A DNA stretch of 23,272 nucleotides from a virus, in IMG/VR virus record IMGVR_UViG_3300033148_004293, positions 1-23,272 of that record. One strand, written 5' to 3'. Position numbers and translations under genes: made by a program. Positions within the stretch are counted from its first letter, which is position 1; each line of letters begins with the position of its first letter. Shown here piece by piece: positions 3,074 through 22,179 of the stretch. Under the pieces are notes generated by a model. It saw only the letters and a list, made by a program, of their open reading frames with translations. It did not search any database and was not told where the DNA came from.

Positions 3074-3652
3074 ATGGTCACCAGGACGACTAAAAAAACA
3101 GCCAAAAAGAAGGCTACTAAAAAAGTAACTAAAGCTACAAAAAAGGTAGCTAAAAAAGCCACACCTAAAAAACCTGCGGCTAATTCAAAATATTCACCAG
3201 AACTAAAGCCTGTAATTCTAAACCTGGCAGCACGTGGAAAAACAAATATAGAAATAGCTGAATTATTAGGTGTTTGTGAAAAGACATTCTATAACTGGCT
3301 GACTAACTTCTGTCCTGAACTTCTACAGCCACTAGAGAAGACCAAAGAAGAAAAGATAGCTGATGTAGAACGTGCTTTGTATGAACGTGCTACAGGTTAT
3401 TCACATAAAGAAACTAAAGTACACATGACTAAAAGTGGTGTGATAAAAACACGTGATGTAATTAAACATTACCCACCTTCTGAAACAGCAGCTAAATATT
3501 ATCTAGGTAATAAAGACCCTGCTAATTGGAAGGAAAAAAGAGAAGTAGAAGTAACAGGTGATGAACCTACACGTAACCTATCATTAGCTTTTAGCTGTGA
3601 TGAAGACCCTGCTGAAGTAGATGCCAGGGGTGGTGATGAACCAGAAGAATGA
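3074..3652 (+). CDS. terS: Terminase small subunit with a histone-like lysine-rich tail
   Basis: This is the likely DNA-recognition subunit of the packaging motor, 192 aa. The first 40 or so residues are a run of K, T and A (KKATKK, KKVAKKATPKK), like the C-terminal tail of histone H1. A helix-turn-helix follows (GKTNIEIAELLGVCEKTFYNW), then a C-terminal segment with ERALYERATGYSHKE and an acidic end. The order HTH, ATGYSH-type helix, acidic tail is seen in small terminases of many phages, and the gene lies just before the HNH nuclease and the large terminase. I prefer ATG 3074 (GGAAG at 3063-3067, 6-nt spacer) over TTG 3056, which lacks a comparable site and would add six residues. Confidence 0.88.
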   Translation: MVTRTTKKTAKKKATKKVTKATKKVAKKATPKKPAANSKYSPELKPVILNLAARGKTNIEIAELLGVCEKTFYNWLTNFCPELLQPLEKTKEEKIADVERALYERATGYSHKETKVHMTKSGVIKTRDVIKHYPPSETAAKYYLGNKDPANWKEKREVEVTGDEPTRNLSLAFSCDEDPAEVDARGGDEPEE

Positions 3653-3890
3653 AATGGGTAAAGCACGTGTAGATAAACTTATATTAACTAAAACACAGAA
3701 AAGGCACATAAAGCAGCAGCTATGGAATGAAAGTAAAAAGTGTGGAATATGTGGTAAAGATTTACCAGGCTTAAAAAGGTCTACACTTGACCACATTCTA
3801 CCCCTGGGTAAGGGGGGTGAAGATAAAAAAGAAAATCTTCAGTTAGCACATTGGAAGTGTAATAACATCAAGGGTGATGACCATGAATGA
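3636..3890 (+). CDS. HNH endonuclease of the packaging module
   Basis: This is a small one-domain HNH nuclease of about 84 aa. Visible parts are CGIC (zinc pair), STLDHILPLGKGG with the catalytic D-H, then ENLQLAHWKCNNIKG with the conserved N, H and second zinc-binding region. In HK97 and other cos phages an HNH protein coded next to the terminase works with it in DNA cleavage and packaging, so this is probably a packaging partner rather than a selfish nuclease. ATG 3636 follows AGGGG (3626-3630) by 5 nt and overlaps the end of the small terminase. ATG 3621 and ATG 3654 (one base after the terminase stop) are also possible; all keep the complete domain. Confidence 0.88.
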   Translation: MNQKNEMGKARVDKLILTKTQKRHIKQQLWNESKKCGICGKDLPGLKRSTLDHILPLGKGGEDKKENLQLAHWKCNNIKGDDHE

Positions 3891-11260: not shown

Positions 11261-12439
11261 ATGGCTGATGCAAAAATAACTGACTTAGATGAACTACTGA
11301 TAGTAGATGATGCTGATGTACTAGTTATAGTAGATGATAGTGTAGCACCTAAGACTACTAAAAAAATTACTGTAGAAAATGCTGTTAAAAACCACCCTGA
11401 TGTAGCAGCTTCTACTACACATAGAAGTCAAACTGATAACCCACATGCTGTTACTAAAGCCCAGGTAGGGTTAGGTAATGCTGATAATACTGCTGACATT
11501 GATAAACCTGTTAGTACTGCCCAGGCTGCTGCTGATGTTCAGGCTATTACTGACCATAAAGCTGAAATTGACCCCCACCCACAGTATGAAACTAGTGCTG
11601 AAGCACAGGCTAAAGTAGATGCCCATGCTAATCTAACTAATAACCCACATGCTGTTACTAAGGCACAGGTAGGTTTAGCTGAAGTAGATGACACTAGTGA
11701 TGCTGATAAACCAGTTAGTATAGCTACCCAGGCTGCTTTAGATGATAAAGCTAGCTCAACCGATCTTACTAACCATGTAAATGACACTACTAACCCACAT
11801 AACGTAACTAAAAACCAGGTAGGTTTAGGTAATGTGGATAATACTAGTGATGTTAATAAACCAGTGAGTACAGCCCAGGGTGCGGCTGATGCTGTAGTGC
11901 AGGGTAATTTAACTACACATATAAATGATAATGGTAACCCACATAACGTAACTAAAAACCAGGTAGGTTTAGGTAATGTTATTAATGAATCTAATCAAAA
12001 AGGCTTTCTCCAATACCAGAATAATAATACACAGAATGCTGATGTAGGTAGCGGCTGGACCACACTAGCTTTTCAAGTAAATAGAGATTCTTTTCCTAAT
12101 AGTCTTTTTACTAAAACAAGTAACACTAATTTTAGAGTAGATTTTGCTGGGTATGTAAAATTTAATCTATCACTAGTAGTAGATACAGCTTCTAATGATA
12201 GGGGTTTTGACGCTAGGGTTTTAAAAAATGGAACAGCTTTGCCGCAGGCTACTTATTTAGGTTTAACTGCTGATAAATCAGATAATGACAGGCAGGCACA
12301 ACTAGGGGCAAGTGTTTTTGCAGAATGTTCTAATGGTGATATTTTTACAATCCAATTACAGGCAGCAGAAGACTCACAAGTAAGAATACTAACAGGTGGG
12401 GCTGTTTTTTCTATTGAAGTTTTTAGGATTAATCCGTAA
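11261..12439 (+). CDS. Fibre protein with NPH-VTK-QVGLGN repeats
   Basis: A 392-aa elongated virion protein, probably trimeric. The N-terminus (KITDLDEL, VLVIVDDSV, KKITVENAV; residues 5-43) matches an anchoring module common in phage fibres. Four repeats start at residues 60, 128, 178 and 226, of the form N-P-H-x-V-T-K-x-Q-V-G-L, the first three continuing with a D-N/D-T-x-D and K-P-V-S run; such repeats form fibre shafts in many phages. The C-terminal 145 residues (from about 247) are beta-rich, resembling C1q/TNF-type knob domains. Being among head genes, not at the tail tip, it may be a head, neck or collar fibre. AAAGGA precedes the ATG; the stop overlaps the next start (TAATG). Confidence 0.85.
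   Translation: MADAKITDLDELLIVDDADVLVIVDDSVAPKTTKKITVENAVKNHPDVAASTTHRSQTDNPHAVTKAQVGLGNADNTADIDKPVSTAQAAADVQAITDHKAEIDPHPQYETSAEAQAKVDAHANLTNNPHAVTKAQVGLAEVDDTSDADKPVSIATQAALDDKASSTDLTNHVNDTTNPHNVTKNQVGLGNVDNTSDVNKPVSTAQGAADAVVQGNLTTHINDNGNPHNVTKNQVGLGNVINESNQKGFLQYQNNNTQNADVGSGWTTLAFQVNRDSFPNSLFTKTSNTNFRVDFAGYVKFNLSLVVDTASNDRGFDARVLKNGTALPQATYLGLTADKSDNDRQAQLGASVFAECSNGDIFTIQLQAAEDSQVRILTGGAVFSIEVFRINP
11438..11989 (+). repeat. Four shaft repeats in the fibre gene
   Basis: Repeat units begin at 11438, 11642, 11792 and 11936. The first three are about 29 residues each and the fourth is shortened. The third and fourth share long nearly identical DNA, whereas the first two are more alike to each other (NPHAVTKAQVGL) than to the last two (NPHNVTKNQVGL), which suggests stepwise duplication. 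Confidence 0.88.
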
Positions 12440-13038
12440 TGATTGAAATTAAGTTAAGTGACTATTCAGAATTTAAAGCTAATATTTCTACCAAAGGTCT
12501 GAAACACTTTAGTTATGTTAAAGATAAACGTATTAGACTTATAGCTATTGATGGTCCACTTTACTATACACACCACCTGGCACCTAAGAATGAAAAAGAT
12601 TATGAAGAAAATTTAAAGGCTTCAGCTAATGGTAAAATAGGTGATGAAGTAGTAATAGCCCCCTTTGCTTCTAAAGGTAAAAACCACTTTAGGGGTAAGG
12701 GTGTAAAGCTGTTATGCCCTAAAGGTGAAGCTACTAATATTGACTATGCTATTCCAGCAGGCACTTTTAGATTTAATGGTATTGAAGTATTAAATGGTGA
12801 CTATGGTGATGAAGTACAGCTTCAAATTGTAGACACGGCTGCTGGTAGTTATTCAGGTGTACCTAGTCATGTATTAGACCAGTTTGGTGACACCTGGAAT
12901 ATGTCTAAAGAATTAAAAAAAGTACTACCCTATGAAGCCACTATTTATTCAGGCATGATAATTAGGGTTAAGTACACCAATAATACTGAAAATGATAAAA
13001 TGGTCTATGTGAACCATGACCTACACCTGGTGGCTTAA
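12439..13038 (+). CDS. Hypothetical beta-rich virion protein coupled to the fibre
   Basis: A 199-aa protein with alternating strands and no helix-rich part except near NMSKELKKVLP. It has an aromatic and Gly-rich middle (NGIEVLNGDYGDEVQLQIVDTAAG) and ends MVYVNHDLHLVA. No family is recognised. Its ATG overlaps the stop of the fibre gene by one base, so the two are made together and may form one structure such as a knob, base or decoration. No signal peptide or membrane segment. Confidence 0.7.
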   Translation: MIEIKLSDYSEFKANISTKGLKHFSYVKDKRIRLIAIDGPLYYTHHLAPKNEKDYEENLKASANGKIGDEVVIAPFASKGKNHFRGKGVKLLCPKGEATNIDYAIPAGTFRFNGIEVLNGDYGDEVQLQIVDTAAGSYSGVPSHVLDQFGDTWNMSKELKKVLPYEATIYSGMIIRVKYTNNTENDKMVYVNHDLHLVA

Positions 13039-13040
13039 TT

Positions 13041-13643
13041 ATGTTAAGTAGTTTTTATAAATTCATACTTAGAAAAACTACCCCCTTCATAAAGTGGGTA
13101 GGTAAAATACATTCACCGTGGTCACGTAAACTAATAAATGGAAAATTCTACTATACAATAAGGGAAAAAGTAGAACCAGGGACGGTACTACTTACCACTA
13201 CCTATGGTGAACTGTCTAACTTAATAAACCCAGTAAGTGTTAAGCACGGTGCCATTTATATAGGCAAAACTACTGATGACATTTGTTATGTGACTGAAGC
13301 TGTAGGTAGTGGTGTTGTTAAAACTGACCTGGTAACATTCTTAACCACTAAAGATGTAGTGATAGTGCTAAAGCCTAACTTCTTAACTGAAACTGATAAA
13401 ACACTACTAACAGGTGAAGCTGTTAAGTTCTTAGGGGTACCCTATGATTACCTTTTTGAACATGGCAAAAAAGCCCTATACTGTTTTGAAAATATAGTAA
13501 GTGTGTTTAAGGCTTTAAGACCTGAACTTAATTATAAGAAAAATGAAATAGTCAAGGGTAAGGCTGTTTATGATTCTAGTACTTTTTTATCAGATAAAGA
13601 ACTGTTTACAGTCTTATTTGATAGTAGGAAAATGAAACTATGA
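13041..13643 (+). CDS. YiiX-like permuted NlpC/P60-type cysteine hydrolase
   Basis: A 200-aa protein that fits the circularly permuted papain-fold hydrolases (YiiX/YaeF and poxvirus G6R relatives). Expected catalytic parts are visible in order: H69 in VSVKHGAIYIG, E86 in YVTEAVGSGVV, and C148 in KKALYCFENIV, the counterpart of the Y-Y-C-S-E motif. GTVLLTTTYGELS (47-59) is the typical first strand. These enzymes act on amide or ester bonds in lipids or peptides; the substrate here is unknown. There is no signal peptide, though residues 1-25 are basic and hydrophobic (FYKFILRKTTPFIKWVGKI). Sitting in the structural operon, it may be carried in the virion. It overlaps the next gene by ATGA. Confidence 0.75.
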   Translation: MLSSFYKFILRKTTPFIKWVGKIHSPWSRKLINGKFYYTIREKVEPGTVLLTTTYGELSNLINPVSVKHGAIYIGKTTDDICYVTEAVGSGVVKTDLVTFLTTKDVVIVLKPNFLTETDKTLLTGEAVKFLGVPYDYLFEHGKKALYCFENIVSVFKALRPELNYKKNEIVKGKAVYDSSTFLSDKELFTVLFDSRKMKL

Positions 13644-14503
13644 AACGTCAAGACTTTTACACAGTAAAATTAAACCTAGATGATGTGTCTGTTAGGGTAA
13701 AAGATTACACCACCCCTTCAGTACCTATGGCTTTAACTGCTGGTCAGTACATGCACGTAGGATATTACAAAGCATTTAGGCAGTTTTATATTGACTTCAA
13801 AGTATTGAATGCTGTGGCTACTAGCCTGGTATTTGAATATTATAATGGTGCTGCCTGGGTAGCTTTACCTGATATAGTAGATGAAACTGAAGACTTTATT
13901 AAGTCAGGTTTTATGTATTGGAACAGACCAGGTGACTGGGCACCAGTAGAAATAGATGGTGATGAAAATTACTATATTAGAATTTCTGCACCTGATGACT
14001 TAACCCCTGAAACAGAACTAAACGGTGTGAATGTACTTTTTAGTAATGATATTGATTTAGTGGGTATCAGGTCTAATATAGTTTCTAAACATAACAATGA
14101 TGAACCTTGGATTGAAAAACATGAAGCTGCTAGAAAGCATATTATTCAGCAGTTTAGAAATTTAGGACACCGTAAGGTTAAACAGGCTAATGGTGATGAA
14201 CCTAATGTACTTTTCACTGGTGAAAAAGAAGATAGCCTTGACTTTTCTGACCTTACACAGTTTGATTTATTTGACCCTTTTCAGTTACGTGAAGCTTCTA
14301 AGTTCTTTGCACTATCCTATATTTACTTAGATGAACTATCTGATGAAAATGATGATAAGTGGGAAAGGGCAGGGTTAAGGCATGATAAACGTGCTGATGA
14401 AGCTTTGAATGTCTTCATGCTTAGGATTGACACCAATGACGATGGTGAAGAAAATGAAGAAGAAAATATGGGTGATACTGGGACTAATTTAACATGGGTA
14501 TAG
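13640..14503 (+). CDS. Head-tail connector-like structural protein
   Basis: A 287-aa two-part protein. Residues 40-140 resemble a beta-sandwich module known from phage structural proteins: FEYYNGAAWVALP, SGFMYWNRPGDWAP and NYYIRISAPDDLTPETEL. Residues 150-275 are helical: WIEKHEAARKHIIQQF, FDPFQLREASKFFALSYIYL and RADEALNVFMLRIDTNDDGE. The last section recalls connector or head-completion proteins, where a helix pair ends in an acidic strand. The position (before the tail terminator-like gene) supports a neck role. The C-terminal tail is acidic. It starts in an ATGA overlap and ends inside the next gene. Confidence 0.65.
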   Translation: MKRQDFYTVKLNLDDVSVRVKDYTTPSVPMALTAGQYMHVGYYKAFRQFYIDFKVLNAVATSLVFEYYNGAAWVALPDIVDETEDFIKSGFMYWNRPGDWAPVEIDGDENYYIRISAPDDLTPETELNGVNVLFSNDIDLVGIRSNIVSKHNNDEPWIEKHEAARKHIIQQFRNLGHRKVKQANGDEPNVLFTGEKEDSLDFSDLTQFDLFDPFQLREASKFFALSYIYLDELSDENDDKWERAGLRHDKRADEALNVFMLRIDTNDDGEENEEENMGDTGTNLTWV

Positions 14504-14949
14504 TAGAAGAAATTCAGACAGCTATTAAGGCTTTGCTGCCAGGACTAACTGACAACGGTAAACAGCTAGACTATGAATATGACATAAATCTAAATTCTGA
14601 TAGGGGCTACACTAACCGCTTTGGCTTTATACCTGGTTCTGCTACCTTTGCTGAAGGTAGGGCTATGGGCTTCACTACAATGAACCATAATTATCAGCTA
14701 ATTCTAACTGATGATTTTCAGAATAAAGATTGTGATGTGGTGCAAAATAGTACACTAATGGGCATGTATAATAAAATTCAGGGTACCCTTAAAGAACTTC
14801 AAAAAAGTAAGTTAGCTTTACCCACCCCAGGCAATAGAGTACTATTAATTAGTGGGCTGGCTATAGATGACCCTGAATTTAATGAAGATAATTCAGTAGC
14901 AGCCTTAAGGGCTAATTTTGTAATACAATATCAATATAGGAATAACTAA
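14494..14949 (+). CDS. Tail terminator-like protein
   Basis: A 151-aa protein with an N-terminal helix (MGIVEEIQTAIKALLPG) and alternating strands such as TTMNHNYQLILTDDF and SVAALRANFVIQYQYR. Size, strand pattern and place directly before the tail-tube gene agree with a gpU-like ring that caps the tail tube and contacts the connector. It overlaps the upstream gene by 10 nt and has no strong Shine-Dalgarno, so coupled translation is likely. Confidence 0.7.
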   Translation: MGIVEEIQTAIKALLPGLTDNGKQLDYEYDINLNSDRGYTNRFGFIPGSATFAEGRAMGFTTMNHNYQLILTDDFQNKDCDVVQNSTLMGMYNKIQGTLKELQKSKLALPTPGNRVLLISGLAIDDPEFNEDNSVAALRANFVIQYQYRNN

Positions 14950-14964
14950 CTAAGGAAGGATAAG

Positions 14965-16152
14965 ATGGGTTATGGTTTAGTAGCTGATGAAGGCAGCGTT
15001 TACGTAGAAAAAGAAGTAACAGAAGGTGAATACGTTGCTGAAACTGAAGGTGCTAGTGCCCTGGAAGTTTTAAGTGACGGTTTAGAATTTACACCTTCAA
15101 AAGAATTACTTGAAAGGAATAATAGAACTGCTACTGTAGAAAAAGTACCTGCTAGGGTAGGTCAAAAGTCTATGGCTGGTTCTATTCCTATTGAATACCG
15201 TGCAGGTTCAGCAGAAGGTGATGCACCTGAAGCTAATGACCTTTATGAAGCCATGTTAGGTGGTAAACGTGTCATCACTTCTACTATTTCTGATACTGGT
15301 CACACAGTATCACGTATTCAGTTAGCTGATGGTGATGGTGCTAAATATAAAATTCATGACATTGTAAAAATTAAAGAATTTGCTGAAAGTGGTGCTGAAG
15401 ATCATGTTAGCCCTATCACTGGTAAGTCTGAAACACCAGGCGATAACTACATTGACCTATTAGTACCAATGGGTGCAGCCCCTTCTGATAATGTAGAAGT
15501 AGCACCAGTTACTATGTATTTTCACCAGTCAGGTGCCCCTACTGTTTCAGTTACAAACTATCTAGGTGGTCAGATTCGTGAAAAAGCTATTGGTATGCGA
15601 GTAACTTCTGCTGAAATTTCTAACTTCAGTACAGGGCAGTTACCACAGGTTACCTTTGCTATGGAAGGTCTGAACTATGAACGTGAAGTAGGTACACCAC
15701 TTTTTGCTTCAGAATTTGATAGCTCACTACCACCTGTAGTACTTTGTTCTAAAATTTACCAGGACGATGTAGAATTAGTACTTAATAACTTTGGTATGAC
15801 CATGACTAACACCCTAGGGTTTTTAACTTCTACGGCTTCATGCCAGGGTAAAATTAGTTCACGTATTACTGAACTAGTTACTACATTTTCAGCTAATCCG
15901 TACATGGAAGATGACGATGTAGAACAGTTTGAAAAATTTGATAAAAACACTGCTTTTAGTATCTTTGGTTCTTCACATAACCCAGGTGCTACTTCTAAAG
16001 ATGAACACTTAGAAATTGTAGCTTTTTATATGCCTAACTGTAGAAGTACTGAAATTACTACAGGTGATGAAGATGGTATTTTAACTGATGCAATTAGTGG
16101 ACAGGCGTATAAGTCTAACGGTAATGATTCGGTATTTCTAGCATTTATCTAA
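14965..16152 (+). CDS. Major tail (tube) protein
   Basis: A 395-aa protein, probably the subunit of the tail tube. The N-terminus (GLVADEGSVYVEKE, LEFTPSKELLERNNRTATVEKVPARVGQKSMAGSI) is the classic tube layout in which a beta hairpin stacks on the next ring, followed by the DLYEAMLGG region. A second half (RVTSAEISNFSTGQLPQV, FAMEGLNYE, ITELVTTFSANPYM) repeats the pattern. The strong AAGGAAGG before the ATG and the terminator 33 bp after the stop fit a highly expressed gene. At 395 aa it is longer than lambda gpV, so it may carry an extra surface domain around residues 110-170. Confidence 0.88.
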   Translation: MGYGLVADEGSVYVEKEVTEGEYVAETEGASALEVLSDGLEFTPSKELLERNNRTATVEKVPARVGQKSMAGSIPIEYRAGSAEGDAPEANDLYEAMLGGKRVITSTISDTGHTVSRIQLADGDGAKYKIHDIVKIKEFAESGAEDHVSPITGKSETPGDNYIDLLVPMGAAPSDNVEVAPVTMYFHQSGAPTVSVTNYLGGQIREKAIGMRVTSAEISNFSTGQLPQVTFAMEGLNYEREVGTPLFASEFDSSLPPVVLCSKIYQDDVELVLNNFGMTMTNTLGFLTSTASCQGKISSRITELVTTFSANPYMEDDDVEQFEKFDKNTAFSIFGSSHNPGATSKDEHLEIVAFYMPNCRSTEITTGDEDGILTDAISGQAYKSNGNDSVFLAFI

Positions 16153-16184
16153 GCTTGTAATAACAATATATTTTTTCTATAGTT

Positions 16185-16216
16185 AAGGGGTACAATTTTA
16201 GTACCCCTTTTACTTT
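16185..16216 (+). terminator. Intrinsic terminator after the tail tube gene
   Basis: AAGGGGTAC (16185-16193) pairs over 9 bp with GTACCCCTT (16201-16209) around a 7-nt AT loop and runs into a T-rich tail. As with the capsid gene, the terminator stands right behind an abundant structural gene while the operon continues 24 bp later without a clear promoter, pointing to tuned read-through. Confidence 0.9.
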
Positions 16217-16232
16217 ATAGGAGAATAACAAA

Positions 16233-16688
16233 ATGGCTATTGTAGTAAGCCCTATGGGCAGAATTTTTAGAATTGAAATTTCACATGAAGAAGAAAAGAT
16301 TAGTTTTGACTTGAAACAATTAGACTATAAAACTAAAGCAAAAATTACATCACTAGTAACTAGTGTAGAAAAAGGGCAGCTTCAAATAGATGCGGCTTTA
16401 CAGGTGTTCTTCAATCTAAAGCATGGTTTAAAAGCCGTGTCAGGGCTAACTGATGAAAATGGTAATGCCTATGCCCTTAAGTTTGAAGATGCTAAAAAGA
16501 CTGAATTAACTGATGACTGTGTAGATGAACTTTTAGCTACTGTACTATCAGATAATCTTCAATATTCAGCCAGGGCTTTATCAGGTTCAGTTATGCCTAC
16601 TGAAATTGTACACCCCCTTACACAGAAAAAAATTGAAGGTGTAGAAGTAATACCCCCTAGTGAACTTAAGGGTGTTACAAAAAAGTAG
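16233..16688 (+). CDS. Tail assembly chaperone, short form (lambda gpG-like)
   Basis: A 151-aa protein. It lies between the tail tube and tape measure genes, where lambda-type phages code the two chaperones that coat the tape measure protein. N-terminal strands (MAIVVSPMGRIFRIEI) are followed by a helical body (LDYKTKAKITSLVTSVEKG, CVDELLATVLSDNL). It ends GVTKK with the last codons ACA AAA AAG TAG. These form the slippery heptamer A AAA AAG in the right phase for -1 slippage, so this ORF is also the first part of a longer fusion protein. AGGAG precedes ATG 16233. Sequence resemblance to known gpG is not obvious; the call rests on position and the frameshift signal. Confidence 0.85.
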   Translation: MAIVVSPMGRIFRIEISHEEEKISFDLKQLDYKTKAKITSLVTSVEKGQLQIDAALQVFFNLKHGLKAVSGLTDENGNAYALKFEDAKKTELTDDCVDELLATVLSDNLQYSARALSGSVMPTEIVHPLTQKKIEGVEVIPPSELKGVTKK

Positions 16689-16744
16689 TAAGCCTCTATG
16701 AAGTGGCTACTATTTGGGACTATGTAAGCTACAGAATAGAGGCT
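16679..16744 (+). promoter_or_regulatory. Programmed -1 ribosomal frameshift signal
   Basis: The heptamer A AAA AAG occupies 16679-16685 in the zero-frame phase A-AAA-AAG, the same as the E. coli dnaX site. The zero-frame stop TAG follows at once (16686-16688). After a 5-nt spacer a stem begins: AGCCTCTAT (16691-16699) pairs perfectly with ATAGAGGCT (16736-16744). Inside, after a 3x3 internal loop of G and A bases, GTGGCT (16703-16708) pairs with AGCTAC (16727-16732), one pair being G-U, around an 18-nt loop. Heptamer, spacer and stem all fit a stimulated -1 shift. Confidence 0.9.
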
Positions 16745-17128
16745 GAAAGTTACTTAACTATCAGTGAAACAGCTATTTTATTGGCTTCTATAGAATCACG
16801 TTTAGACCCTAAAGCGTTTGACTGTGGTACCTGTATAATGCAGTATGGTAAATCAGCAAAAATGCAGGGTAAGTCAGACCGTAAACGTCAATCTAAAGGC
16901 TGCTTTGATCTAAAAACTAAAAGTTACAGGCTAGAAAATATTAGATACAATAACTGTATAGGTAACCACACGGTACCCATTGATTTTATTGTAGATGCTT
17001 TTCTACATTATGAAAAAGGTGGGCTACCATTTGAAGGTACTTTAGGTGACCAGCCAAATAAAATGATAGAAATATTTGACATGTTTCACCGTAGAAGGAA
17101 TGAATTTACAAAAAAGAACGCTAAATAA
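16685..17128 (+). CDS. Tail chaperone extension (T part of a GT-type fusion, via -1 frameshift)
   Basis: After -1 slippage the frame runs GTA GTA AGC CTC TAT GAA and on to 17125, so the fusion 16233-17128 is about 298 aa. The T part reads VVSLYEVATIWDYVSYRIEA and onward. A separate start at GTG 16703 is possible but has no Shine-Dalgarno and lies within the frameshift stem, so I do not favour it. The domain has four cysteines (C41, C44, C67, C85 counted from GTG 16703: CGTC, then SKGCF and NNCIG), perhaps a metal site. It ends in a basic helix (FHRRRNEFTKKNAK). In lambda, gpGT binds the tape measure and recruits tube subunits. Confidence 0.87.
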   Translation, partial: VVSLYEVATIWDYVSYRIEAESYLTISETAILLASIESRLDPKAFDCGTCIMQYGKSAKMQGKSDRKRQSKGCFDLKTKSYRLENIRYNNCIGNHTVPIDFIVDAFLHYEKGGLPFEGTLGDQPNKMIEIFDMFHRRRNEFTKKNAK

Positions 17129-17139
17129 GGAAGTTTAAC

Positions 17140-19545
17140 GTGCCTAATACTATAAGTGTAGCCATTGAGCTAGAAGGTAAAGATGCCTTACGAACCTTAA
17201 CTGCATTAAATAAAGGTGTAAAAGATTTAGGTAAAACAGGTACCCAGTCTATTAAATCAATGGACGTAGCACTAGGTAGTTTTGTGGGTAACTTAGGTGC
17301 CCAGGCTGTACTTAAGTCAGTACAGTTAGTAAGTACTGCTTTTCAAGACGGTGCAAAATCAGCTTTAGATTTTGGTAAAGCTGTAGCAGAAATTAACTCT
17401 ATTGCACCTAGAACTGCGGCTGAAACTTTAGCACTTAAACAGCAGTTAGTAGGGCTGTCTAATGAATTTGGTGGTGAAGCTCAAAAACAGGCACGTGCAT
17501 TTTATAACATTGTATCAGCAGGTGTACAGGGCACGGCAAAGCAGTTAAATGTTTTAGAAACTGCTAATAAAGCAGCCGTGGCAGGGCTAGTAGATATTGA
17601 TACTAGTGCCAGGGTTTTAGTAGCCTCAGTTAATAGTTATGCCCAGTCAGGACTAACAGCCAATGAAGCCAGTGATATATTATTTACTACTGTTAAAGAA
17701 GGTATAACTACTTTCGGTGAATTATCTAGTAGTATAGGTACAGTAGCACCTTTAGCCGCAGCCGCAGGGGTAGAATTTTCTGAACTAGGTGGTACCCTAG
17801 CATTCTTAACTAAATCAGGTGTTAGTACTGCTGAAGCAGCCACAGGTATTAGGGCATTATTAACTTCAATTATTAAACCTGCTGAACAGGCTTCACAGGC
17901 TGCTAAAAAACTAGGTATTGACTTTTCTACAGCAGCCATTAAGCAAAAAGGCTTTGTAAATGTTCTAAAAGAAATTAAAGATGCCACAGGCGGCAGTGAA
18001 GCTGAACTAGCTAAACTATTCCCTAATGTAAGGGCGTTAGGCGCAGCTATTCAAATTACATCAGGTAACTTTGATGACTTTGTTAGAATTTTAGAAAATA
18101 CAGGGGCAGCTACAGGGGCTACTGATAAAGCACTAGCCGTAATTACTGACAGTGCTGCTTTTCAATTTGACAAACTAGTTAACCAACTTAAAAACTTTCC
18201 TACAGCTATACTTACTAATTTTGAAGAACCATTAAGTGATGGTCTAAAAGCCATTAATGAATTTGTAGGCGGTCAGGGTGTCCTACTTCTAGTAGATGCG
18301 GTAGATGGTATTATTAGTGCTTTTCAATTCTTTAATTCAGCAGCCAGTGAAGTAGATCAGTTTTTTAACTTTATTGCCGCAGGGGCTTTGAATACGGCTA
18401 AAGCCTGGAATGAATTTTTATTATCAGTAAACAGTGCTAGACAGGCACTAGCTGAATTTACAGGTGAAAGTGACCATTTAGAAAATCTTAAACAGCAGGA
18501 AGAAGGTTTAAGAAAAAATATTCAAGTGTTAGACCAGGCAGTTATAGCTAACCAGCAGGCTACACTTAAAATTCAAGCTGAAGAAGAAAAACGTTTTAAT
18601 GTAGCTGAAGACTTTAGAAAAAAGATTGAAGCAGGACGTGAAGCACAGGTAGCTGCTGAAGATGCTAGACGTGAAGAACAAAAAGAAAAAGATAAAGAAA
18701 AAGCTGAAAAAGAATTAGAAGCAGCACTAGAAACTGAAACAGTTAAATTTGAAGCTATTCAAGAACTTAAAGCTGCACAACGTGAAGAAGAAAAAGAACT
18801 AGAAGAACAGGCTAAACTAGAAAAAGAATTAGCCCAGGAAGAAGAATTTAAGTTTTTAGCTAAAAACTTAGGTAAAGAACGAACGCTACGTGAACTAAAT
18901 AGAATTAAAAACATTGAAGATGAAGGTAAAAGACAAAAAGAACTTAAGAAACTAAGAGATAAAGCCAGGACAGAAGAAAAAGCTAGTATTTTTTCTTTAC
19001 GTCAGTTTGAAGATTTAAGTAACCGTGAAAAGATAGCTGCGCAGAAGTCTACACTTCAAACTATTTCTACCCTAAGTCAGTCTTCTAATAGTGCCCTTTT
19101 TGCTATTGGTAAAGCTAGTTCACTGGCTTTAGCCGGTATAAATGTGGCTGAAGGTGTTACCAAAGCCCTGGCTGCATTCCCACCACCTTTTAACTTTGCT
19201 GCGGCTGCGGCTGTAGGGGCTGCTGGTGCTATCAATATTGCTAAAATTGCTAGTGCTAAACCGCCTTCTGCTGGTAACTTTCAAAGCGGTGGTATCGTAG
19301 AAGGCTCTAGTCAGTCAGGTGACCAGCTAACTGCTAATGTAAATGGTGGTGAAGCTATATTTAATAGAAGACAGCAGCAAAACCTTTTTAGGGCTGTAGA
19401 CCAGGGTAATTTAGGCGGTGGTAATAATATAACCATCAATAACCCTATGTTCATGAATGAAGAAATGGTAGATGAAACTATTGATTTAATAAATGACCGT
19501 GTAGAATTTGGTAATAAAAGGCTGACAGCCAGTGAGGTAGCATAA
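17140..19545 (+). CDS. Tape measure protein
   Basis: An 801-aa protein that sets tail length and is expelled at infection. Residues 80-340 match the TP901 core (AVAEINSIAP, LSNEFGGEAQKQARAFY, VASVNSYAQSGLTANEASDILF, GVEFSELGGTLAFLTKSGVSTAEAATG). Residues 475-640 are charged coiled coil (EEQKEKDKEKAEKELEAAL). Hydrophobic stretches lie at about 650-705 (ALFAIGKASSLALAGI, FNFAAAAAVGAAGAINIA), likely for membrane insertion. The C-terminus has the usual QSGGIVEG and NGGEAIFN motifs (715-742). At about 1.5 angstrom per residue the tail would be near 120 nm (inferred). Start is GTG 17140 after AAGGAAG. Confidence 0.96.
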   Translation: MPNTISVAIELEGKDALRTLTALNKGVKDLGKTGTQSIKSMDVALGSFVGNLGAQAVLKSVQLVSTAFQDGAKSALDFGKAVAEINSIAPRTAAETLALKQQLVGLSNEFGGEAQKQARAFYNIVSAGVQGTAKQLNVLETANKAAVAGLVDIDTSARVLVASVNSYAQSGLTANEASDILFTTVKEGITTFGELSSSIGTVAPLAAAAGVEFSELGGTLAFLTKSGVSTAEAATGIRALLTSIIKPAEQASQAAKKLGIDFSTAAIKQKGFVNVLKEIKDATGGSEAELAKLFPNVRALGAAIQITSGNFDDFVRILENTGAATGATDKALAVITDSAAFQFDKLVNQLKNFPTAILTNFEEPLSDGLKAINEFVGGQGVLLLVDAVDGIISAFQFFNSAASEVDQFFNFIAAGALNTAKAWNEFLLSVNSARQALAEFTGESDHLENLKQQEEGLRKNIQVLDQAVIANQQATLKIQAEEEKRFNVAEDFRKKIEAGREAQVAAEDARREEQKEKDKEKAEKELEAALETETVKFEAIQELKAAQREEEKELEEQAKLEKELAQEEEFKFLAKNLGKERTLRELNRIKNIEDEGKRQKELKKLRDKARTEEKASIFSLRQFEDLSNREKIAAQKSTLQTISTLSQSSNSALFAIGKASSLALAGINVAEGVTKALAAFPPPFNFAAAAAVGAAGAINIAKIASAKPPSAGNFQSGGIVEGSSQSGDQLTANVNGGEAIFNRRQQQNLFRAVDQGNLGGGNNITINNPMFMNEEMVDETIDLINDRVEFGNKRLTASEVA

Positions 19546-19980
19546 ATGAACTTCAAAGGTAACCAGTCTAGGCACCCACTGTACAGTACTTGGAATGACA
19601 TGAAACGTAGATGCTACGTTGAAAGTAGACCTGAATACATAAATTATGGCGGTAGGGGTATTGAAGTTTGTAATAGATGGTTAGGTGACTTCTGGTTATT
19701 TGTTAAAGACATGGGTAAAAAACCTAAAGGGTATTCACTTGATAGAATTGATAATGACGGTCACTATTGCCCTGAAAATTGTAAATGGTCCAGTAGAAAA
19801 GAACAAAATAAAAATAAAAGAAATGAATATGTAAATACAAAACATAAAAATATTTATAAAGTAAGTACAGGCTATCAAGTAATTTTAACTAAACCTAGAA
19901 GAAAATATATAGGTACTTTTAAGTCATTACTAACTGCTAAAAAAGCACTTAAGGGGGTGTCTTATCAACTTCATTCCTAA
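19546..19980 (+). CDS. HNH-AP2 homing endonuclease
   Basis: A 144-aa free-standing homing endonuclease. HPLYSTWNDMKRRCY (10-24), NYGGRGIEVCNRW (33-45), SLDRIDNDGHYCPENCKW (64-81) and EQNKNKRN (86-93) are the marks of this HNH group. The C-terminal part (NIYKVSTGYQVILTKPRRKY, IGTFKSLLTAKKALKG; 102-136) resembles an AP2 DNA-binding domain. Such enzymes cut phage genomes lacking the insert and so spread. It starts directly after the tape measure stop (TAA then ATG), using GAGG upstream. Its first codons ATG AAC TTC A match the start of the next gene apart from one base, so the ATG and ribosome site probably belonged to the tail gene first. Its 3' end contains AAGGGGGTG, the ribosome site of that next gene. 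Confidence 0.92.
   Translation: MNFKGNQSRHPLYSTWNDMKRRCYVESRPEYINYGGRGIEVCNRWLGDFWLFVKDMGKKPKGYSLDRIDNDGHYCPENCKWSSRKEQNKNKRNEYVNTKHKNIYKVSTGYQVILTKPRRKYIGTFKSLLTAKKALKGVSYQLHS
19549..19966 (+). mobile_element. 418-bp homing endonuclease insertion flanked by AACTTCA repeats
   Basis: AACTTCA occurs at 19549-19555 and again at 19967-19973; including the preceding bases the match is ATGAACTTCA against ATCAACTTCA (9 of 10). Removing the 418 bp between equivalent points joins the tape measure stop to ATG AAC TTC ATT CCT AAA, a normal start for the following tail gene. This reconstructs a plausible pre-insertion junction. The exact borders are inferred. Confidence 0.65.
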
Positions 19981-20371
19981 AATAGAGTACACACAAAGGG
20001 GTACAGGCACCCCTTTAGTTTTAACCTTTGATAGCCCCCCTGAAGGTGACCCCTTTGGTGAAAGTTATAAAGATAATAAAGTAGTTACCAGGTCAAACAA
20101 TGGTACACCACAAACGCAGTTTAACTACACCCTTAAAACATTTGGTGTAGAATTTATTTTTCAATCTGAAAGTGTAAAAGATGATTTTATTACTTTTAGA
20201 CAGACAGCAAAGTATGGTGCTACCTTTAAATATTTTCCTTCTTCTGATGAAGCTGAATATGAAGAATTTACCCTTGACGGTAAGGGTGTAGAAATTAGTA
20301 GACCTATACCAGCAGCCACACCTGGTGAATTTGAATATGACTTTAAACTGTCAATGTCTAGGGTATTCTAA
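19964..20371 (+). CDS. Distal tail-type protein with a non-standard ATC start
   Basis: This open frame codes about 135 aa and has no ATG, GTG or TTG start before a Met five codons from its end. It reads (M)NFIPKIEYTQRGTGTPL, VLTFDSPPEGDPFGE, TPQTQFNYTLKTFGVEFIF, KYGATFKYFPSSDEAEYEEF, and ends EYDFKLSMSRVF. Strand pattern, size and place between the tape measure and a hub-like gene fit a distal tail (Dit-like) protein. The best start is ATC 19964: AAGGGGG ends about 6 nt upstream, and the upstream gene's first codons give ATGAACTTC for the same position. CTG 19934 is the only other near-standard start and has no ribosome site. A base error at 19966 (G read as C) is possible. Its stop overlaps the next ATG by one base (TAATG). 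Confidence 0.8.
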   Translation: MNFIPKIEYTQRGTGTPLVLTFDSPPEGDPFGESYKDNKVVTRSNNGTPQTQFNYTLKTFGVEFIFQSESVKDDFITFRQTAKYGATFKYFPSSDEAEYEEFTLDGKGVEISRPIPAATPGEFEYDFKLSMSRVF

Positions 20372-22179
20372 TGGGTTACAATGATGAAGCCGTAAAAAAA
20401 GATTTAGAACTAAATGTAGTAGTTACTGTAGACGGTGTTCATTATGCCATGAAACAGCCTGACAGTGGTTTAGTAATTGATAGTGATAAATTAGTAGTAG
20501 ATGACCCACGTGTTAATGGTGTCACTATTGACATTAGAAAAGTCAGTACACCTATTGGTACCTTTTCCTTTAAAGTTAAAGAAGATAATGAAGACCCTAA
20601 TATGAGTACTATTATCATGCAGGACGCTACCCAGTGGCTTAAAAAAGAATGTGTGGTTAGAACAGGGTTTTTAACAGGTTCATTTGATATAGCCGATTAT
20701 AAAGAAATAGCTAGGACCAGGGTAAATAGAGTAACTAAAACTAGAAATGGTTATTCTATCAAAACTAAAGAAGTCACTGGTTTAGTAGATGAAGAAGCCC
20801 TAAACATAAACGATAGCCTTCAAACTTTCATGTTAGATACCACCTTAAGTTTAGATGTAACTGATGGTAGTCAGTACCCTAATTCAGGTATTCTAAATAT
20901 TGAAGGTGAATTTATGTCGTACACCAGTAAGACTGATGACACCTTAGAAAATATAACTAGGGGTATTTTTGGTACTACGGCTGAAGAACATGAAGTAGGT
21001 GAAGCTGTATTTTTAGTTACACCAGCCCTACTAACTAACCCTATAGACCTAATGCTTCAGGTAATGCTATCTGACCAGGGTGATAACACTAATGACCCTA
21101 CCTATGATGTATTAAATGGTGGTCTAGGTATTTCACCTGATGATGTAGATATAACTACCTTTGAAGAAATACGTGATGAATTTTTTGTAGGTGAACAGCA
21201 TGATTATTATGTTTATGATAATTCATCTATGCTTAAATTCTTAGAACGTACAGCCTTAACTGCTACAAATACCAGACTTATAACTATTAATGGTAAAATA
21301 AGTTTAGCCCTTTTAGATCAGGTAGACTTTGAAGAAGAAATACCCATACTAGATGAAAGCAGTATTAAAGGTACACCCACCTGGTCACTAGATGAAAATA
21401 AAGTAGTGAACAGAATAGAAGTAAGTTATGACTTCAATCTAGCGACACAAAAATATGAAAGTCTTACGGTTTTTGAAGATGCTGAAAGTATAACTAACTT
21501 TGGGTTAAAGAAGCCGTTAAAACTTAAATTTGAAGGTGTAACTTCAGCTTTAAATGGTGGGGCTATTGTATCTGACCGTGCTAATAGATTACTGGGTAGA
21601 TTATCTACAGCCAGGGGGTCTATAACTGTTAGTTCACATTTTGATGCTTCTACTTTAGATATTGGTGGTAATGTTCAATTAGTTCACAGGTTCTTACCGC
21701 AGCAGGGGGGTACATTAGGTTTTTCAGACAGACTAGAAATTATGAGTAGGTCCATTGACCTAAAAAAAGCTATAGTCAAGACTAAATTAGATTTTACTTC
21801 TTACACAGGTATTAGAATAGCCTTCATAGCTCCTAGCCCTAGAATAACCAATGTTATTAGTAGTAAAAGCGTAGAAGTAGATAATGCAGAATGTCTAAAA
21901 GTAGGGTATTTAATTAAGTTATTTAAAGATGGTCCTATAGTTGACGGTGACCCTACTATAGGCAGCTATTTACCTGATGATATTAACATAATAGAATCTA
22001 TAGTAGGTAATGTAGTGAATTTTACCAGTGACTTTGTGAGTGTTTTAGGTACTGACATTGTTTTAAAAATGGCTGACTATGATGAAGCTAATGAAGAACA
22101 AAAAGCCAGGTATGCCTTTATAGGTGATAATTCAGGCTTCTTCAATGATGGTTCTAAGTCATACCAAATAATCTTTTAA
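20371..22179 (+). CDS. Tail hub / tail tip protein
   Basis: A 602-aa structural protein placed after the distal tail gene, where siphophages code the hub that closes the tail tube. The first 140 residues look like hub beta-barrels (LNVVVTVDGVHYAM, TFSFKVKED, YSIKTKEVTGLVDEEAL). Residues 158-215 form an inserted module seen in several phage tail proteins: LDVTDGSQYPNSGILNIEGE, FMSYTSKTDD, NITRGIFGTTAEEHEVG. From 225 to 480 there is an alpha/beta region (MLKFLERTALTATNTRLITI, NRIEVSYDFN, RANRLLGRLSTARGSITV), as in gp27/Tal-type proteins. I see no lysozyme or peptidase motif. Translation is coupled to the upstream gene. Confidence 0.78.
   Translation: MGYNDEAVKKDLELNVVVTVDGVHYAMKQPDSGLVIDSDKLVVDDPRVNGVTIDIRKVSTPIGTFSFKVKEDNEDPNMSTIIMQDATQWLKKECVVRTGFLTGSFDIADYKEIARTRVNRVTKTRNGYSIKTKEVTGLVDEEALNINDSLQTFMLDTTLSLDVTDGSQYPNSGILNIEGEFMSYTSKTDDTLENITRGIFGTTAEEHEVGEAVFLVTPALLTNPIDLMLQVMLSDQGDNTNDPTYDVLNGGLGISPDDVDITTFEEIRDEFFVGEQHDYYVYDNSSMLKFLERTALTATNTRLITINGKISLALLDQVDFEEEIPILDESSIKGTPTWSLDENKVVNRIEVSYDFNLATQKYESLTVFEDAESITNFGLKKPLKLKFEGVTSALNGGAIVSDRANRLLGRLSTARGSITVSSHFDASTLDIGGNVQLVHRFLPQQGGTLGFSDRLEIMSRSIDLKKAIVKTKLDFTSYTGIRIAFIAPSPRITNVISSKSVEVDNAECLKVGYLIKLFKDGPIVDGDPTIGSYLPDDINIIESIVGNVVNFTSDFVSVLGTDIVLKMADYDEANEEQKARYAFIGDNSGFFNDGSKSYQIIF

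What the first reader, a model, noticed from the sequence alone, without database searches (positions are those of the whole stretch)
19546..20371. Homing endonuclease captured the start codon of a tail gene, leaving it with ATC
Seen: the frame 19964-20371 codes a complete tail-type protein but has no ATG, GTG or TTG start. At 19964 it reads ATCAACTTCA; the HNH gene just upstream begins ATGAACTTCA. A 418-bp deletion between equivalent points gives ATG AAC TTC ATT CCT AAA directly after the tape measure stop. AAGGGGGTG, inside the end of the HNH gene, sits at proper distance from ATC. Inference: the element inserted at the start of an essential gene, took over its ATG and ribosome site, and supplied a strong Shine-Dalgarno so that ATC can act as start. 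Very few bacterial genes use near-cognate starts of this kind (infC with AUU is the known case), and gene callers will miss this gene.
Basis: partly seen in the sequence, partly recalled or inferred. Interest (0 to 1): 0.9.

Follow-up and report, generated by a model that had tools for sequence, protein, structure and literature searches.

The report
Phage tail gene left with ATC start
In this phage a small mobile DNA-cutting gene has inserted exactly at the start of a tail gene, taking its ATG, so the intact tail gene is left with no ATG, GTG or TTG and can best be started at an ATC that sits behind the strongest gene-associated ribosome-binding site in the window; this would be an unusual but testable case of a structural gene using a near-start codon.

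Summary
The frame 19964-20371 is intact but has no ATG/GTG/TTG before codon 130 of 135. Eight other phages encode a relative, and all start it with ATG, GTG or TTG at the matching place. In the seven without an insert, that start lies directly after the tape-measure stop. The ATC is not one assembly's error: a second, distinguishable strain (about 70 differences at 12.75-15 kb) carries the same ATC. The 435-bp HNH gene starts with the tail gene's ancestral first ten bases and uses the ancestral ribosome site. Its 3' end holds AAGGGGGTG, the strongest Shine-Dalgarno before any gene here (-14.3 versus -8.6 kcal/mol), 6 nt before ATC. A different HNH gene sits at the same junction in another phage, but there the tail gene keeps AGGAG...ATG. 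Best reading: AUC initiation driven by an extended Shine-Dalgarno, probably helped by re-initiation, since the frames overlap by 17 nt. Expression is not shown. AUU/AUA starts with extended Shine-Dalgarno sites are demonstrated in S. aureus (PMC13009471), so this is a new variant of a known kind. Main rivals: +1 frameshifting and a damaged gene.

The parts
17140..19545 (+). tail tape measure protein gene (801 aa); its 3' end carries GAGGT, the ancestral ribosome site of the tail gene, now used by the HNH gene
   Evidence: PHROG tape measure families (phrog_991, E 1.9e-40); Pfam PhageMin_Tail; SD CAGUGAGGUA -7.9 kcal/mol before 19546
19546..19980 (+). HNH endonuclease gene (144 aa), the inserted element; starts with the tail gene's captured ATGAACTTCA
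   Evidence: phrog_374 HNH endonuclease E 1e-42; absent at this place in seven relatives
19546..19555 (+). left copy of the 10-bp near-repeat, ATGAACTTCA (ancestral start of the tail gene)
   Evidence: same letters at the start of the tail gene in L002 (ATGAACTTCATACC)
19950..19959 (+). TAAGGGGGTG, extended Shine-Dalgarno inside the last codons of the HNH gene; made of codons AAG GGG GTG that are seldom used here
   Evidence: duplex -14.3 kcal/mol, strongest of all genes, three such places in the window; codon choice has p of about 0.004 given Lys-Gly-Val
19964..19966 (+). ATC, proposed start codon; right copy of the near-repeat is 19964-19973
   Evidence: only near-cognate with correct SD spacing; aligned with ATG/GTG/TTG in relatives
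19978..19980 (+). HNH stop codon TAA, 14 nt downstream of ATC; the two frames overlap by 17 nt (tail frame is +1 to HNH)
19964..20371 (+). tail gene, 135 codons, tail-tube/baseplate-hub fold, no canonical start codon
   Evidence: relatives in IMG/VR, best 53-56% identical; AlphaFold2 pLDDT 79.6; Foldseek/VIA matches to phage baseplate hub and tail tube proteins
20371..22179 (+). next tail gene; its ATG overlaps the tail gene's stop (TAATG)

Best explanation
A free-standing HNH homing endonuclease gene inserted at the first codons of the tail gene that follows the tape measure gene. The endonuclease is now translated from the tail gene's old ribosome site and ATG. Its own 3' end carries an extended Shine-Dalgarno (AAGGGGGTG), which together with ribosomes finishing the endonuclease (stop 14 nt downstream of the new start) lets fMet-tRNA start the tail protein at AUC 19964, giving fMet-Asn-Phe-Ile-Pro-Lys. 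Shown: the insertion, the capture, the intact frame, the lack of a canonical start, the strength and spacing of the Shine-Dalgarno. Inferred: that AUC is used, that coupling helps, that the gene is essential.
For: Relatives without the insert have tape measure stop then ATG/GTG/TTG at exactly the aligned codon. The N-terminus N-x-I-P-K-I is invariant from the residue after the start, so a start elsewhere would lose or add conserved sequence. No ATG/GTG/TTG until codon 130. SD -14.3 kcal/mol against -8.6 for the next best gene. Codons AAG-GGG-GTG are each minority choices in this AT-rich phage, joint p about 0.004. The same ATC occurs in a second strain. The genome record has no second copy of the tail gene. 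Parallel case L088: another HNH at the same junction supplies AGGAG before the tail ATG. Literature: near-cognate AUU/AUA starts with extended SD give about 10-30% of AUG expression in S. aureus (PMC13009471); an AUC-start rny-lacZ fusion in B. subtilis was still expressed, at much lower levels (PMC10303841); ribosomes re-initiate within about seven codons of a stop, and SDs raise this (PMC2988022; PMC2268962).
Against: No expression or protein data. Only two strains carry the arrangement and their tail genes are identical, so long-term maintenance of ATC cannot be tested. A structural tail protein might be expected to need more than the output of a near-cognate start. The host and its 16S tail are unknown; the anti-SD was assumed canonical. 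The SD can pair locally with GAATG just after the start (hairpin -6.3 kcal/mol, z -0.9).
Confidence: 0.72

Rival explanations
1. The tail protein is made only as an HNH-tail fusion by +1 frameshifting near the end of the HNH gene (for example tRNA-Gly slipping on GGG-G at 19953-19957, or at TCC-TAA 19975-19980).
For: The tail frame is exactly +1 to the HNH frame and overlaps it by 17 nt. A G5 run allows perfect re-pairing after a +1 slip, and TCC-TAA resembles antizyme-type +1 sites (own knowledge). A hairpin lies about 15 nt after the stop (19995-20016).
Against: The A-site codon at GGG-G is GTG, not slow; no SD-like element at the short spacing known from prfB before TCC-TAA (own knowledge). 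A 136-residue endonuclease fused to a protein whose N-terminus is invariant in relatives would be unlikely to assemble.
Confidence: 0.07
2. The insertion or a later G-to-C change has crippled the tail gene: these genomes are less fit or defective, and the frame is intact only because the damage is recent.
For: Two strains are identical over the tail gene, so no purifying selection after the insertion can be measured. AUC is a weak start (PMC10303841).
Against: Two distinguishable strains assembled from metagenomes both carry it, so it persists. The frame has no lesion. The SD strength and codon choice look selected.
Confidence: 0.1
3. The element leaves the DNA or RNA (precise deletion between the 10-bp repeats, or splicing), so that the tail gene regains its ancestral ATG start.
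For: The near-repeat would give a perfect start after a 418-bp deletion.
Against: No Rfam intron match, only chance-level hits. The 418-bp insert is almost wholly HNH coding sequence, with no room for a known ribozyme core. Both assemblies contain the insert; no excised close relative was found among viral contigs.
Confidence: 0.05
4. Another near-cognate is used (ATT 19973, or CTG 19934).
For: AUU is the best documented near-cognate in E. coli; both are in frame.
Against: ATT lies 15 nt from the G-run and would drop the conserved N-F. CTG has no SD (-2.9 kcal/mol) and would add ten residues.
Confidence: 0.04
5. Base 19966 is wrong or a minority variant; most phages have ATG.
For: Metagenome assembly; no reads could be examined.
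Against: A second assembly of a different strain has the same C.
Confidence: 0.02

Closest known systems
AUU/AUA-started genes with extended Shine-Dalgarno in Firmicutes (S. aureus cvfC1, ccpN, citZ, infC; PMC13009471)
   Same: Near-cognate AUN start behind an unusually long SD at start-proximal spacing
   Different: Those are host genes, several with conserved near-cognate starts; here a phage structural gene with AUC, produced by a mobile element that took the ATG
infC (AUU) and pcnB (AUU) of E. coli
   Same: AUN start in a bacterial-type gene
   Different: AUU not AUC; starts used for control of expression; no mobile element (cited in PMC13009471 and PMC2268962)
Free-standing homing endonucleases of T4-like phages (mob and seg genes; PMC2988022)
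   Same: HNH/GIY genes between phage genes, overlapping neighbours, using upstream expression signals and carrying promoters for downstream genes; mobE and mobA insertions split genes
   Different: In the reviewed T4 cases the overlap is with the upstream gene; a downstream gene left without a canonical start is not described in the passages read
ShiLan-type hidden HNH insertions in phage methylases (PMC11855218)
   Same: HNH gene inserted in a phage gene in another frame with unusual translation
   Different: Inserted inside the reading frame; the endonuclease, not the host gene, has the unusual start
L088 (IMGVR_UViG_3300012231_000070)
   Same: Another HNH of phrog_374 at the same tape measure/tail junction, also starting where the tail ATG would be and supplying a new SD
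   Different: Only 40% identical over 90 aa, so probably an independent insertion; the tail gene there keeps ATG

Membership tests
Free-standing HNH homing endonuclease gene | HNH endonuclease domain by profile | tested here: met
   phrog_374 E 1e-42, phrog_3377 E 2e-39
Free-standing HNH homing endonuclease gene | present/absent at one site among relatives | tested here: met
   absent in seven relatives, present in window and L001; a different HNH at the junction in L088
Free-standing HNH homing endonuclease gene | cleaves the empty site and copies itself there | not testable with these tools
   needs a cleavage assay and a mixed infection
Near-cognate (AUN) start with extended Shine-Dalgarno | no canonical start in the frame where the protein begins | tested here: met
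Near-cognate (AUN) start with extended Shine-Dalgarno | extended SD at proper spacing | tested here: met
   -14.3 kcal/mol, 6 nt from the G-run to ATC
Near-cognate (AUN) start with extended Shine-Dalgarno | near-cognate start conserved in diverged relatives | tested here: inconclusive
   only two strains, identical over the tail gene, carry the insert; other relatives have ATG/GTG/TTG
Near-cognate (AUN) start with extended Shine-Dalgarno | initiation at the codon shown by ribosome profiling or N-terminal peptide | not testable with these tools
   no expression data
Group I/II intron | conserved catalytic RNA core | tested here: not met
   only chance-level Rfam hits over 19300-20400; the insert is nearly all HNH coding sequence
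Programmed +1 frameshift | slippery codon with slow A-site plus stimulator | tested here: inconclusive
   GGG-G run but A-site GTG; TCC-TAA without close SD-like stimulator
Tail-tube/baseplate-hub fold (Dit N-terminal, lambda tail tip, CIS hub proteins) | fold of the tail-tube type | tested here: met
   AlphaFold2 pLDDT 79.6; Foldseek E 3e-4 to phi812 baseplate; VIA Z 10.4, 121 residues, rmsd 4.1 to phiCD508

The most novel reading that the evidence does not exclude
A phage structural gene is translated from AUC as its only start, after a homing endonuclease took its ATG; the endonuclease's 3' end has evolved an extended Shine-Dalgarno that makes the tail gene depend on the element, so imprecise loss of the element is lethal: a general retention strategy of start-capturing endonucleases.
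Probability: 0.35. Interest if true: 0.75.

Novelty: new variant of a known kind. Interest (0 to 1): 0.58.

Why it matters
If AUC starts a virion protein, it shows that an extended Shine-Dalgarno (and perhaps coupling) can sustain a phage structural gene on a codon that gene callers do not accept, and that mobile genes can settle at gene starts by supplying the downstream ribosome site. It gives a natural insertion pair (this window and L088) in which the same junction was invaded with and without loss of ATG. It also warns that conserved phage genes may be missed next to endonuclease insertions: an ORF caller limited to ATG/GTG/TTG does not list this one.

Tried and rejected
Group I/II intron or other known RNA: only two chance-level hits, E 0.27 and 0.67, far below their gathering scores. 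Second copy of the tail gene in the record: none. Tail relatives in annotated phage genomes, in bacterial/archaeal genomes, in PHROGs or Pfam or by sequence in the PDB: none. Survey of 60-odd HNH loci for another gene left without a canonical start: two candidates (L065, L075) showed no sign of being genes of that kind. A target-site duplication as a general feature of these HNH genes: exact repeats of 9-12 bp at unrelated registers occur in other loci, so the repeat alone proves nothing. HNH inside a dUTPase gene in Staphylococcus phage PT94 (H21): the translated ORF reads as an HNH protein from end to end, so the dUTPase label looks like a misannotation. tRNA genes in the window that might read AUC: none. 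Hecht et al. 2017 (all 64 codons) is not held, so no AUC efficiency for E. coli is quoted.

Full report
WHAT IS THERE. The window is a whole 23,272-base virus record with a structural gene order. The tape measure gene (17140-19545, phrog_991 E 1.9e-40) ends with TAA. The next base starts a 144-aa HNH endonuclease gene (19546-19980, phrog_374 E 1e-42). The tail frame, +1 relative to the HNH frame, overlaps its last 17 bases and runs 135 codons from ATC 19964 to TAA 20369-20371, where the next gene starts with TAATG. The frame is closed upstream by TAA 19931. Between there and codon 130 it has no ATG, GTG or TTG; near-cognates are CTG 19934, ATC 19964, ATT 19973 and ATA 19982. An ORF listing restricted to ATG/GTG/TTG does not show it.

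THE BASE IS REAL AS FAR AS ASSEMBLIES CAN TELL. A second contig, IMGVR_UViG_3300033142_002028 (L001, continued by L093), covers 11826-22056. It differs from the window at about 70 places in clusters between 12.75 and 15 kb, by a repeat rearrangement near 11.8 kb, and at only two places further on (17773, 21962). It has the same ATC. It is thus a distinguishable strain and not the same assembly. Raw reads could not be inspected.

THE TAIL GENE AND ITS ANCESTRAL START. Relatives were found only in viral contigs: L002-L006 (42-56% identical over the matched part), L088, L089 and L091. All encode (M)NFIPKIEY, (M)ANFIPKIEY or a close variant. In the seven without an insert the start codon follows or overlaps the tape measure stop: L002 TAATGAACTTCATACC, L003 GTG after 10 nt, L004 TAAAAATGAACTTTATTCC, L005 and L006 TAAAATGGCx, L089 TAATGGCA, L091 TAACTTGGCA. 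Residues N2, I4, P5, K6 and I7 are invariant in alignment A3. AlphaFold2 on that alignment (mean pLDDT 79.6) gives a beta-rich fold. Best structural matches are phage baseplate-hub, tail-tube and contractile-injection-system proteins (Foldseek E 3e-4; VIA Z 10.4 over 121 residues, rmsd 4.1, to a phiCD508 tail protein; a lambda tail-tip chain, Z 7.9). A virion role is therefore likely; essentiality is inferred.

THE INSERTION. The HNH gene's first ten bases, ATGAACTTCA, are the tail gene's ancestral start (identical to L002), directly after the tape measure stop, and it uses the ancestral SD (GAGGT, -7.9 kcal/mol). The right-hand copy, ATCAACTTCA, differs by one base. Whether C at 19966 is a later change in a 10-bp duplication or the last base of the element next to a 7-bp duplication cannot be decided. 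In a free search such repeats are common at HNH ends; the argument rests on register, not on repeat length.

A NATURAL CONTROL. In L088 a different HNH gene (40% identity over 90 aa; also phrog_374) occupies the same tape measure/tail junction. It starts at the place of the ancestral ATG (TAATGG). The tail gene that follows has TAGGAGAATTATGGCCAAT, with the new SD at the very end of the endonuclease gene. So invading this junction and taking the old ATG while supplying a new ribosome site probably happened twice; only in the window is the downstream start not ATG. In a survey of 60-odd HNH loci from IMG/VR, the window's arrangement (seen in L001) is the only one whose downstream frame lacks a canonical start near the HNH stop (candidates L065 and L075 set aside).

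HOW IT PROBABLY WORKS. TAAGGGGGTG (19950-19959) pairs with the canonical anti-SD at -14.3 kcal/mol. It is the best of all genes in the window by almost 6 kcal/mol and one of three such places on both strands. The last G of the G-run is 6 nt from ATC, inside the 5-9 nt range (PMC2268962). The SD is spelled by Lys-Gly-Val codons AAG GGG GTG, each a minority codon here (0.29, 0.10, 0.13; joint about 0.004), which suggests selection for the site, with the caveat that this test was chosen after seeing it. The HNH stop lies 14 nt downstream of ATC, within the reach of bidirectional scanning after termination (PMC2988022; PMC2268962). AUU and AUA starts with extended SDs were shown by ribosome profiling and reporters in S. 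aureus, at about 10% and up to 30% of AUG (PMC13009471). An AUC-start fusion in B. subtilis was still expressed, at much lower levels (PMC10303841). I therefore put 0.72 on AUC initiation, de novo or coupled. The alternatives (+1 frameshift fusion, damaged gene, excision, other near-cognates, base error) are listed with their tests. No step of expression has been shown.

NOVELTY. Near-cognate AUN starts behind extended SDs and free-standing endonucleases overlapping neighbours are both known kinds. A virion gene left with AUC by start-codon capture was not found in the papers searched, though the library holds only open-licence papers. I rate it a new variant of a known kind.

Noticed in passing
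L088:2499-2987: A second, different HNH endonuclease gene sits at the same tape measure/tail junction in another contig; the tail gene there keeps AGGAG and ATG.
   Followed up: yes
window 19995-20016: Hairpin AAAGGGGTACAGGCACCCCTTT just inside the tail ORF; its 3' arm CACCCCTTT can alternatively pair with the Shine-Dalgarno 19951-19959. Could modulate initiation or be chance (z -1.5).
   Followed up: partly
window 11676-12439: Gene with repeated NPHxVTKxQVGLGNVDN units; the repeat region is arranged differently in the sister strain L093.
   Followed up: no
window 12750-15000: Differences between the two strains come in tight clusters (13.25-13.5 kb, 14.5-14.75 kb), with almost none from 15 to 22 kb around the HNH gene; could reflect recombination or a homing co-conversion tract.
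   Followed up: partly
window 3621-3890: Small ORF before the large terminase gene that reads like a second HNH-type protein (not profile-tested); its end contains AGGGGGGTGA, the strongest anti-SD match of the window, which is not directly before a listed start.
   Followed up: no
L090:2300-2989 (Staphylococcus phage PT94): ORF labelled dUTPase in the record reads as an HNH endonuclease with an AP2-like C-terminus; probably a misannotation.
   Followed up: partly
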